From contig NZ_AP018786.1 of assembly GCF_003609995.1 (NCBI RefSeq), positions 1,250,001 to 1,314,000 on the forward strand: DNA of 64,000 nt, given 5' to 3'. Each line of letters opens with the position of its first letter. Position 1 is the stretch's first letter. A program made the position numbers and the translations under genes. This document shows, piece by piece, positions 22,309-25,430 of this stretch. This DNA comes from Sutterella megalosphaeroides. GTDB lineage: Bacteria > Pseudomonadota > Gammaproteobacteria > Burkholderiales > Burkholderiaceae_F. The notes below the pieces were generated by a model. It did no database searches. It was not told where the DNA came from and saw only the letters and a program-made list of their open reading frames with translations.

Positions 22309-22444
22309 CGCGGCCGTCGCAACGGACACGACCAAAACGATCGAAACGAACGGGCGCCCGAGAGGGCGCCCCGAAAGAGCGCGGAGAGGAGCGAGGAGAC
22401 CCCGCGCGGCGCTCTGCGCGCCCGTACGTCCGATTCCGGAAACC

Positions 22445-22477
22445 TCGGTGAAAACAACTATTTTTTCACCGATTTTT
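22445..22477. terminator. Intrinsic terminator after HAD gene
   Basis: CGGTGAAAA and TTTTCACCG pair, followed by ATTTTT. The A-rich other side makes it bidirectional. Confidence 0.8.
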
Positions 22478-22577
22478 AGCTCGCACAAGAGGGATTACGC
22501 TCGATTGGCGCAAACCTTGTCCGACAACAAGGTCTCTCGGGAAAGCGGTATCCGAGCGGGGCGTAAACCGCTACTAT

Positions 22578-22736
22578 TCCCCTAGCGGGGCCGGTACGCT
22601 CCTCTCTCTGAGCGCCCGCTGTCAAACACCTCCTGGCGCAGCCGGGCAGCTCGCGTCATCGGCCTCGTCTCTTGTCCCGCAACGATCTACTCCCCGCCAC
22701 TTCCCGAATCGTAGATGTTGCGGGAGTTTTTTGTCC
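22578..22736 (+). ncRNA. Candidate small RNA or transcribed leader with intrinsic terminator
   Basis: The 5' part folds into two stacked helices (AGCGGG/CCCGCT around CGCTC/GAGCG, about 22583-22625). The 3' end is a strong terminator: CCCGCAAC-ATCTAC pairs with GTAGATGTTGCGGG (one bulged base) and runs into AGTTTTTT (about 22677-22732). A TACTAT at 22572-22577 is a possible -10. No protein gene upstream needs this terminator, because another lies at 22445. The family is not recognised. Confidence 0.5.
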
Positions 22737-22793
22737 GCGGTCCGTATAATTTTCGCTTCCGACATACTTCGCGCCTTACGGAGGCCATTTTTT

Positions 22794-23327
22794 ATGACGA
22801 CCGAATCCACGGCCCTTGCCGTTCCGCCCACGCTTGAGGATCCCGACACGCTCGCTGAGCTGCTCACCTACGCGGGCGGCGAATTTTTGCGCGCGCTTCG
22901 CATCGAAGACCCCGAAGAGGCCGCCCGCAAGGTCTCCGAAGTGCTCTTCGGTCTCGCCGGCGTCTTCTCCGAAGAAAGCGGCATCGTGCAGCTCCCGAAG
23001 GGCTGGACGCTCGCGGGTGCGGGCGCTCGCCTTCGCAACGATGAAATCGTCGTTGCGCGTCTGAAGGAACTCTCCGACGAAGATCGCGCCCTCTTTGACG
23101 AAGACGACCAGATCATCGTCCTTGCGATTCAGGTCTTCTTCGAAGAAATCGAAGAGCTCGCGCGCGATTGGTTCGAGCGCAACAACGCGGAAGCGTTCGA
23201 CGACGAAGCGATTCACCGGTTCCTCGCCGACCCCGTCGTGCACCTCATGGTGCTGGAATTCGGCTCCTGGCTTCTCGGCGAATCGACCGACGAGAAGACG
23301 GCGAAGGACGCGGAGGCGGCGGAATGA
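22794..23327 (+). CDS. Unknown acidic helical protein (small-protein cluster, gene 1)
   Basis: A 177-residue, very acidic, helix-rich cytoplasmic protein with GGAGG upstream of its ATG. No known family is recognised. It has no signal peptide or membrane segment. Its second half (DEDDQIIVLAIQVFFEEIEELARDWFERNNAEAFDDEAIHRFL, shown here by position only, about residues 103-145) aligns in pattern with the corresponding regions of the next two genes, which suggests one diverged paralogous family. It overlaps the next gene by ATGA. Confidence 0.7.
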   Translation: MTTESTALAVPPTLEDPDTLAELLTYAGGEFLRALRIEDPEEAARKVSEVLFGLAGVFSEESGIVQLPKGWTLAGAGARLRNDEIVVARLKELSDEDRALFDEDDQIIVLAIQVFFEEIEELARDWFERNNAEAFDDEAIHRFLADPVVHLMVLEFGSWLLGESTDEKTAKDAEAAE

Positions 23328-23791
23328 CCGAGGCTGCGACCGACGCGAAAAAGATCGAAGTGTTCGACCGCGCGACGCTTCTTTTGACGCTGCGCCTTAC
23401 CTTCGAAGCCGTTTTTCAACAGATTGCCGACGTCCGTCAGGGGAAGCTCACCCCGGATGAAGCCGCCGAGCGCGACGACGCGGCCGTTCGAGCGATGGCC
23501 CGCGTGCTGATGGGCGAAAACGACGCCGTGACGACGGAGCTTCCCTACGTCGGGGGCGCGCTCGTCGAGAAACTGCGCGCCGCGGAGCCGCAGCTTTTCG
23601 AAGGGGTCGAAAGCGACAACCCCCGTGCGCTCATGGTGGGCGCGTGCCGCATGTTCATGAAGGAAATTTACGGGACGATCCGCGAGCTCGTGCGCGCGAA
23701 TCCGCCTCTGAGCGACGACGAAAAGAAGGAACGGGTCCTGGGGCTCGTCGCCCTCTGGGAGCGTCGCTTCACGGGCTCGACCGACAACTGA
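23324..23791 (+). CDS. Unknown helical protein (small-protein cluster, gene 2)
   Basis: A 155-residue protein starting at the ATG that overlaps the previous stop by four bases. It is predicted all-helical, without Cys-rich or membrane elements. Residues about 65-155 (GENDAVTTELPYV through ALWERRFTGS) align in length and pattern with the C-terminal 95 residues of the next gene (GENPHFEDTGEWL through ARWARRLTGM). This points to tandem duplication. Function is unknown; co-translation suggests a complex. Confidence 0.7.
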   Translation: MTEAATDAKKIEVFDRATLLLTLRLTFEAVFQQIADVRQGKLTPDEAAERDDAAVRAMARVLMGENDAVTTELPYVGGALVEKLRAAEPQLFEGVESDNPRALMVGACRMFMKEIYGTIRELVRANPPLSDDEKKERVLGLVALWERRFTGSTDN

Positions 23792-23804
23792 GAGGAGAAG
23801 CGTC

Positions 23805-24308
23805 ATGGCTCGATGCGGATCCGGATGCGCCTCCGATTGCCGGCGCTCCTGCGGGCACGACCACGGCTCGAAGGCCGAACGGCGCCCCGATTTGCTCTCG
23901 ATCGAAGTGGTCGAGGGACTTCTCGGGCAGGCGTGCCGCAATATGAAAAAGCGCTTTGAAGCCGAACTCGCGGGCGAAATGAGCGCCGACGAACACGTCG
24001 AGCGCACCGAAGCGCTCGTCGATTGGCTGACGCTCACGTTCGCGGGCGAAAATCCCCATTTCGAAGACACGGGCGAGTGGCTGCCCTCGGGGCTCGCCGA
24101 GTACCTGCGCGAGACGGACGAAACGCTCCGTTCGGGGTTCGCGTCGGACCGCACCGTGATCGAGCGCGCTGCGCGGCAGTTCGTCACCGAAACGGCGGGC
24201 GCGCTCGCTTACTTCCACGAACACCCAGCGGAAGGCTCGGTCGACGACTTCCTCGGCTTTCACGGCGCGCGTTGGGCGCGTCGCCTGACGGGGATGTACG
24301 AGGGGTGA
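23805..24308 (+). CDS. Unknown helical protein with Cys/His-rich N-terminus (gene 3)
   Basis: A 167-residue protein. The first 21 residues contain four Cys and two His (MARCGSGCASDCRRSCGHDH), a plausible metal-binding or lipid/thiol-modification segment. The remainder is a helical domain paralogous to gene 2, sharing GEN near residue 85 and a terminal RWARRLTGM. The start has GAGGAG nearby. It ends the first transcription block, with a terminator 40 bases downstream. Function is unknown. Confidence 0.7.
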   Translation: MARCGSGCASDCRRSCGHDHGSKAERRPDLLSIEVVEGLLGQACRNMKKRFEAELAGEMSADEHVERTEALVDWLTLTFAGENPHFEDTGEWLPSGLAEYLRETDETLRSGFASDRTVIERAARQFVTETAGALAYFHEHPAEGSVDDFLGFHGARWARRLTGMYEG

Positions 24309-24703
24309 CGGCGGACGCTCCGCCAGAAAGCACGGAAACAGCACGGAAAAAGCGCTCGGACTTTTCGAAGCCGGGCGCTTTTCCTTTTTCCTCCTTATTT
24401 CCGGATGCCCGACTGGCCGATTGTCCGATTGGCTCTTCGCGTTTTCGCCCCGGAAACGGGTAAATCCTGTCGTCGGCTTGCGCTTTCTCAAGGAAGGAAG
24501 ACGCGCCCCGCGAAAGGCGCCCGCAGGCGCGTCGCGCCGCACGGAATTTGCTACGATGAAAGTTTCCCCGGCGTTTCGGGGACGGGTGAGGTGCGCGCTC
24601 GGGGCTTTGAACCCGGCGACCAAAACGACAACATGTCCGACAGGTTCAAGAGCCGTGTCGGATGCCGATCGCACCGCCCGCTTTCAAACTCAGGAGGCCC
24701 ACC
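24309..24703. other. Intergenic leader with hairpins
   Basis: After the terminator, a TACGAT hexamer (about 24551) may be a -10. The following leader holds TCCCCGGCG-type and TCCGACA/TGTCGGA (about 24637-24663) hairpins. No gene is seen. Confidence 0.4.
24348..24389 (+). terminator. Intrinsic terminator of small-protein operon
   Basis: AAAAGCGCTCGG (24348-24359) pairs with CCGGGCGCTTTT (24371-24382) and continues into CCTTTTT. Confidence 0.85.
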
Positions 24704-25144
24704 ATGCTTTTCGAAGACCTTCGTGATTTTCTTCAGGTTCGCCCCGGCAACGGCATTCTGGAAATGCGCGACGACCGTGTGACGACGCCCTTTGCGATTC
24801 CCGGCTCGACGGAACGCGTCGCCGTGTCGGTGCGTGCGATGGAAGGGGGCTTTTACTTCGTGCACGACGACGGCGCGATGAAGCGTCTCCTCCCCGAATT
24901 TGACGTCGTGACGAAGTCCCCCGTGTTCGCGGGCGTTCAGGACGAGTGGATCCGCTGCGGTCTGCAAGTCGACGAAGAAGGCCGCATTTTCACGACGACC
25001 GATGAAACGGGGATGCTCGAAGCCGTCGCGCGCGTGATCGAAGCGCAGATCGAGCTCGGGGCCCTGTGCCTCGCGTTCGTCGGCCACGCGAATGCCGGCA
25101 TGCCGAAGTGCGCTTCTTCTTCCTGCTCCGCGGCCCATGACTGA
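24704..25144 (+). CDS. DUF1828-like protein with Cys-rich tail
   Basis: A 146-residue protein preceded by AGGAGG. Residues 1-75 (MLFEDLRDFLQ, then TPFAIPGSTERVAVSVRAMEGGFYFVHDDG) resemble the DUF1828 fold found in small phage- and plasmid-linked proteins, though the match is by eye only. The C-terminus ends with Cys and Ser repeats (MPKCASSSCSAAHD). It overlaps the next gene by eight bases. Role unknown; the recurrence of a Cys-rich end next to the Cys-rich gene 3 product is notable. Confidence 0.55.
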   Translation: MLFEDLRDFLQVRPGNGILEMRDDRVTTPFAIPGSTERVAVSVRAMEGGFYFVHDDGAMKRLLPEFDVVTKSPVFAGVQDEWIRCGLQVDEEGRIFTTTDETGMLEAVARVIEAQIELGALCLAFVGHANAGMPKCASSSCSAAHD

Positions 25145-25430
25145 GTCCTTGGGATCGGGGCGACCGACCAACCGCGCGCTCGCCCAAGCCGACATGGCCG
25201 CCATCATGGGGCGGCTCTCGCCCGACGCGCTTCGCACGCTGCGGGCGGTCGCGGCCATGCGTCATCGACCGCCCGAAGAGGTTCTGAGGGAAGAGCTCGA
25301 AGGGTACGTCGCCGACCAGATTCCCGCCGTGGACGTCGAGGGAATCATTCGACTCATGGGGGCCCGACTCTACGAAATCGGCTACCTCGTGGGGTCGATG
25401 AAGCGCTTCATCCGAAAGCACCGCTCCTAA
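25137..25430 (+). CDS. Small helical protein of unknown function
   Basis: A 97-residue protein starting within the end of the DUF1828-like gene. It is helical, with a central hydrophobic stretch (VDVEGIIRLMGARLYEIGYLVGSMKRF) that is amphipathic rather than a clear membrane span. No family is recognised. Coupled translation indicates a joint function with its neighbour. Confidence 0.6.
   Translation: MTESLGSGRPTNRALAQADMAAIMGRLSPDALRTLRAVAAMRHRPPEEVLREELEGYVADQIPAVDVEGIIRLMGARLYEIGYLVGSMKRFIRKHRS

What the first reader, a model, noticed from the sequence alone, without database searches (positions are those of the whole stretch)
22794..25430. Cluster of small unknown proteins, two or three of them diverged tandem paralogues with Cys-rich ends
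Genes 2 (23324) and 3 (23805) align over about 95 residues, sharing GEN and a terminal W-R-R-x-TG pattern; gene 1 fits the same pattern more weakly. Gene 3 starts with a Cys/His-rich segment and the DUF1828-like protein at 24704 ends with one. All are overlapping or closely spaced, and the set is preceded by a structured transcript. Nothing here matches a known pathway.
Basis: partly seen in the sequence, partly recalled or inferred. Interest (0 to 1): 0.6.

Follow-up and report, generated by a model that had tools for sequence, protein, structure and literature searches.

The report
Ancient paralogue array with phage relatives
Three neighbouring unknown genes in a gut Sutterella are ancient duplicates of one undescribed helical protein family, kept in every sampled genome of eight related gut genera, usually beside a membrane-scaffold operon, and the same family occurs in phages next to an enzyme predicted to be delivered into the host cell.

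Summary
Genes 1-3 (22794-24308) are three members of one protein family with no Pfam, NCBIfam, PHROG, PADLOC or PDB match. The family forms a tandem array of 1-4 copies in all 43 genomes of eight gut genera (Sutterella, Duodenibacillus, Parasutterella, Turicimonas and others) and in none of the other 24 genomes searched in the same family. The copies are ancient: the tree groups them largely by position in the array. A Cys-rich N-terminus marks the last copy only (37 of 42, against 0 of 76 other copies). In 31 of 42 loci the array directly follows stomatin (of an nfeD-stomatin pair) or an nfeD; the window has lost this link. Gene 5 is next to the array only in Sutterella, gene 4 in three genomes, and gene 4's Cys tail is not conserved. 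Unexpectedly, the same family occurs in phages, always between an ADP-ribosyltransferase and a NUDIX gene, once annotated as particle-associated. The family, array, context and phage homology are shown. The mechanism (a heteromeric helical adaptor complex working with the NfeD/stomatin membrane platform) is inferred, at about 30%.

The parts
22794..23327 (+). gene 1: first paralogue of the array (177 aa)
   Evidence: profile score 51 bits vs shuffle maximum 8.8; groups with first copies of other Sutterella
23324..23791 (+). gene 2: middle paralogue (155 aa), overlaps gene 1 by 4 bases
   Evidence: groups with middle copies of Sutterella and Duodenibacillus
23805..24308 (+). gene 3: last paralogue (167 aa); five-helix model, pLDDT 90
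23805..23870 (+). Cys/His-rich N-terminus of gene 3 (MARCGSGCASDCRRSCGHDHGS), possible metal site
   Evidence: 3 or more Cys in the first 22 residues in 37 of 42 last copies, 0 of 76 other copies
24704..25144 (+). gene 4: 146-aa protein, a rare insertion between gene 3 and gene 5
   Evidence: found in 3 of 67 genomes; no Pfam match
25137..25430 (+). gene 5: 97-aa helical protein, Sutterella-specific neighbour of the array
   Evidence: adjacent in 12 of 12 Sutterella genomes; relatives in other genera lie elsewhere; model pLDDT 77, pTM 0.46
22676..22732 (+). terminator-like hairpin with U run upstream of gene 1
   Evidence: read from sequence and fold; similar hairpin at the same place in L053 and L034

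Best explanation
Genes 1-3 are three specialised subunits of one undescribed all-helical protein family, made together from a tandem array that arose before eight gut genera of the Sutterellaceae split. SHOWN: family membership, ancient duplication with copy positions kept, close or overlapping gene spacing, a Cys-rich N-terminus on the last copy only, the ancestral nfeD(-stomatin)-array gene order, and homology to a phage protein placed between an ADP-ribosyltransferase and a NUDIX hydrolase gene. INFERRED: the copies form a heteromeric soluble complex; the last copy binds a metal (zinc or an Fe-S cluster) through its Cys/His/Asp N-terminus; the complex acts as an adaptor or holding factor for client proteins at the membrane platform built by NfeD and the stomatin-type SPFH protein. 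In the phage, the single-copy relative would do a similar adaptor or chaperone job for the neighbouring ADP-ribosyltransferase and NUDIX proteins. The confidence given is for the whole statement; the family and context part alone is above 0.9, the adaptor mechanism about 0.3.
For: Present in 43 of 43 genomes of eight genera, 0 of 24 in the other ten genera of the family. Tree: 'last' copies need 2 changes against 27.8 in shuffles, all position groups together 12 against 51.5. Median spacing between copies is under 10 nt, many overlapping. NfeD or SPFH is the next gene upstream on the same strand in 31 of 42 loci, gaps -40 to 202 nt; in L032, L035, L039, L040, L050, L052 and L057 the partner is NfeD, and the genomes of genera g16 and g17 also hold a separate NfeD-SPFH pair elsewhere. 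Phage members score 74-95 bits with the Sutterellaceae profile, shuffles at most 8.5; cassette order conserved in four phages and four viral contigs. Family model is five helices, pLDDT 90, pTM 0.81; the best Foldseek matches among viral models are uncharacterised phage proteins.
Against: No interaction or expression data. In 9 of 12 Sutterella genomes, the window included, the array is not beside nfeD-stomatin, so close linkage is not essential. SPFH and NfeD genes also occur in genomes without the array. The Cys-rich end is lost in three genomes of g15. No known fold suggests a function.
Confidence: 0.4

Rival explanations
1. The array is an independent housekeeping operon that merely happened to lie downstream of nfeD-stomatin in the ancestor; the neighbourhood says nothing about function.
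For: Most Sutterella genomes have separated the two and keep the array intact; further family members lie elsewhere, e.g. between a DUF1178-type gene and a CstA-like gene.
Against: In L032, L035, L039, L040, L050, L052 and L057 a diverged NfeD stays coupled to the array, with gaps of 7 nt or less in six of the seven, and the g16 and g17 genomes keep a separate NfeD-SPFH pair elsewhere, which is hard to explain by chance.
Confidence: 0.3
2. The family is of phage origin or exchange, and the bacterial array protects against injected phage effectors: the paralogues bind and block a phage ADP-ribosyltransferase, or act as decoys of its phage partner.
For: The phage homologue always sits between an ADP-ribosyltransferase and a NUDIX gene and is annotated as particle associated in Yersinia phage fHe-Yen8-01; the paralogues evolve fast; PMC9503650 argues that phage ARTs and NUDIX proteins are often packaged and injected.
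Against: A universal, positionally stable array in eight genera is unlike the patchy spread of defence genes; no PADLOC match; no ADP-ribosyltransferase or other defence gene noticed beside the array; the known phages infect Pseudomonas and Yersinia.
Confidence: 0.12
3. Genes 1-5 form a toxin-antitoxin or regulatory cassette, with gene 5 a ribbon-helix-helix type regulator.
For: Weak FitA-like RHH score for gene 5 (E 0.058, below cut-off).
Against: Universal core genes, no toxin-family match; gene 5 relatives lie apart from the array in other genera; the gene 5 model is all-helical and low in confidence.
Confidence: 0.05

Closest known systems
Phage protein between virion ADP-ribosyltransferase and NUDIX (Yersinia phage fHe-Yen8-01 gp130 WOL24340.1; Pseudomonas phages Jeremy, Dolphis, Touem01)
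   Same: same protein family by profile (74-95 bits), same length, shared central motif (F.G....W...GLA.Y.R)
   Different: single copy, N-terminus LNHHND instead of Cys-rich, next to ADP-ribosyltransferase and NUDIX genes
NfeD-SPFH1 (YbbJ-YbbK/QmcA, stomatin) operons (PMC2636767)
   Same: the array is the downstream extension of this operon in most of the eight genera
   Different: the array family is an additional module; the paper's passages read here do not mention it
TetR-type ligand-binding domains (e.g. EthR 5f27)
   Same: weak helical-bundle resemblance, Z up to 8.4, rmsd 3.3 over 103 residues
   Different: no DNA-binding domain, 10% identity; Z in the range expected for unrelated helical bundles

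Membership tests
The array/phage helical family (defined here) | profile match to A1/A3 well above shuffles, 155-190 aa | tested here: met
   genes 1-3 and phage proteins
DUF1828 (gene 4) | Pfam match above or near cut-off | tested here: not met
   no match at E 10 for gene 4 or its two relatives
Ribbon-helix-helix antitoxin (gene 5) | Pfam RHH score above cut-off | tested here: not met
   13.8 bits against cut-off 27
Ribbon-helix-helix antitoxin (gene 5) | N-terminal strand then two helices | tested here: inconclusive
SPFH/NfeD accessory protein | conserved same-strand linkage to nfeD or SPFH genes | tested here: met
   31 of 42 loci; not in the window itself
SPFH/NfeD accessory protein | physical or functional interaction | not testable with these tools
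   needs bench work
Known anti-phage defence protein | PADLOC profile match | tested here: not met
   no match
TetR ligand-binding fold | clear structural match | tested here: inconclusive
   Foldseek E 0.7 or more for all PDB chains; VIA-align Z at most 8.4

The most novel reading that the evidence does not exclude
A protein family shared between phage virions and a bacterial chromosome: the phage copy accompanies an injected ADP-ribosyltransferase and NUDIX enzyme, while Sutterellaceae expanded it into a three-subunit, metal-binding complex that controls ADP-ribosylation or protects membrane-associated targets of such phage effectors.
Probability: 0.1. Interest if true: 0.8.

Novelty: new variant of a known kind. 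Interest (0 to 1): 0.5.

Why it matters
It defines an uncharacterised protein family that is universal in the sampled genomes of eight common gut genera, gives it an operon partner (NfeD/stomatin), and links it by clear homology to a phage gene beside predicted virion-delivered ADP-ribosylation enzymes. Both links make its function testable, and the phage genes, which have no assigned function, gain a cellular counterpart.

Tried and rejected
Plasmids: no match. Samples of the order (399 genomes), phylum (398) and class (369): nothing convincing outside the eight genera. Delftia phage PhiW-14 and Aeromonas phage hits were not supported: the PhiW-14 match lies on the strand opposite its annotated gene, and neither record recurred with the consensus query. 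TorD-type chaperone and SEC-C-type zinc motif were considered from memory only; no search result pointed to them. Upstream RNA: no Rfam family. No paper holds the name fHe-Yen8-01.

Full report
The window lies in a single-contig genome of 2.73 Mb. Contig names and lengths of fetched relatives place the same-genus group as Sutterella: the G061 contig of 61,159 bases is S. wadsworthensis DSM 14016. Others are Duodenibacillus (g4), Parasutterella (g16) and Turicimonas (g17); this naming is inferred from matching contig lengths.

Observation. The five ORFs are as described. Gene 2 and gene 3 align at 30% over 113 residues; gene 1 needs a profile. An HMM made only from non-Sutterella first and middle copies scores gene 2 at 75 bits, gene 3 at 55 and gene 1 at 51, against 8.8 for the best shuffled sequence; one made only from last copies scores gene 3 at 135 and gene 2 at 43, but does not see gene 1. 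All three are therefore one family, gene 1 the most diverged.

Distribution. With gene 3 alone or with the family profile, 43 of 67 genomes of the taxonomic family match. In the profile search these are all 43 genomes of eight genera, and none of the 24 genomes of the other ten genera. (With gene 3 alone one of those 24, G025, matched at E 0.004 and is not counted, and one array genome, G014, was missed.) Samples of the order, phylum and class gave nothing convincing elsewhere. Each array holds one to four copies, head to tail, with a median gap under 10 nt and many overlaps. The window genome also has two dispersed members, at 2421937-2422440 and near 904035.

History. A tree of 99 sequences groups copies largely by array position rather than by genome (12 label changes against 51.5 in shuffles; 'last' 2 against 27.8). 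The duplications therefore predate the genera. The tree is a quick one with some long branches, so fine branching is not relied on. The last copy alone carries a Cys-rich N-terminus: 37 of 42 have three or more Cys in the first 22 residues, against 0 of 76 other copies. The usual pattern is C..C..C then [DH]-[FH]-S-S. The start codons of non-window copies were chosen by a simple rule, so a few N-termini may be wrong; one last copy (L041) is probably cut short this way.

Context. Clustering of neighbouring ORFs shows an ancestral order: a PEP-synthase-like gene (or a cation/proton antiporter-like gene), NfeD-like, stomatin-type SPFH, array, then an iron-type alcohol dehydrogenase-like gene in several genera (names of these neighbours from sequence recognition, SPFH supported by Pfam). 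NfeD or SPFH is the nearest upstream gene on the same strand in 31 of 42 loci, 24 of them SPFH and 7 a diverged NfeD. The exceptions are nine Sutterella loci, the window included, and two at contig ends. The genomes of g16 and g17 carry a separate NfeD-SPFH pair elsewhere. In the window genome NfeD and SPFH are at 1106229-1107296, away from the array. The literature describes NfeD-SPFH1 operons as a common unit (PMC2636767).

Phage relatives. tblastn of gene 3 gave weak hits to the same gene in several phages: annotation showed it directly after an ADP-ribosyltransferase gene in Yersinia phage fHe-Yen8-01 and Pseudomonas phage Jeremy. The family profile then scored these proteins and that of phage Touem01 at 74-95 bits, shuffles at most 8.5. 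Pfam finds an ADP-ribosyltransferase exoenzyme domain in the gene before the Jeremy copy, and a NUDIX domain in the gene after the Jeremy and the fHe-Yen8-01 copy. Four IMG/VR contigs keep the same order. fHe-Yen8-01 annotates the protein as 'particle associated', and its ADP-ribosyltransferase as a phage particle associated toxin; the method behind that label was not seen. PMC9503650 argues that phage ARTs and NUDIX proteins are often packaged and injected. Foldseek, from the gene 3 model, independently ranks five uncharacterised phage proteins first among viral models (TM 0.56-0.78 on the query); the first is 167 residues long, like the Pseudomonas phage homologues, but its identity was not verified.

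Structure. The gene 3 model has five helices, pLDDT 90, pTM 0.81, with a low-confidence N-terminus. No PDB chain reaches Foldseek E 0.1; VIA-align Z values up to 8.4 to TetR-type domains are in the range expected for unrelated helical bundles.

Genes 4 and 5. Gene 4 is in three Sutterella genomes only, has no Pfam match, and its Cys tail is not in its relatives. Gene 5 adjoins the array, or gene 4, in all 12 Sutterella genomes; its relatives in other genera lie elsewhere.

Mechanism. Conserved copy order, tight spacing and ancient specialisation suggest subunits of one complex. The Cys-rich end suggests a metal site. The nfeD(-stomatin) linkage suggests work at the SPFH/NfeD membrane platform. 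The phage context suggests that a single copy can serve as partner of a virion-delivered ADP-ribosyltransferase. An adaptor or holding role fits all four, but is inferred; I give it about 30%. A neutral neighbourhood is about as likely; a defence role is possible but less so.

Limits. No expression, interaction or metal data.

Noticed in passing
window 22310-22793: Intergenic region before gene 1 has a strong terminator-like hairpin (22676-22724 plus U run); the string ACCTCCTGGCRC at 22628 recurs at the same place in L053, and a similar hairpin in L034. No Rfam match; possible unidentified small RNA or leader.
   Followed up: partly
L085 5908-6441 (genome 2421937-2422440): A dispersed family member lies between a DUF1178-type gene and a CstA-like transporter gene, and the same arrangement recurs in several other Sutterella genomes.
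   Followed up: partly
L086 5859-6968: A 369-aa Sutterella protein contains a weak copy of the family domain in its first half; no Pfam match.
   Followed up: no
L055 7413-8456: In G057 array copies 1 and 2 lie in one open frame of 348 aa: a possible fusion, or an assembly error.
   Followed up: no
L090 282-5267, L166 25890-26276: The phage NUDIX protein and a small upstream protein share an N-terminal motif (VKGHVKGYTKRDGTYVKPH / VKAHVAGYTRSDGTFVAEH), with a looser similar stretch in the ADP-ribosyltransferase; possible virion-packaging signal. The family protein lacks it.
   Followed up: no
L032, L035, L039, L040, L050, L052, L057: A diverged NfeD gene is coupled to the array in these genomes; those of g16 and g17 also keep an NfeD-SPFH pair elsewhere.
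   Followed up: partly
L147 and L148 (g15): A gene 5 relative lies next to, and convergent with, a 208-aa protein with a weak match to the array family.
   Followed up: no
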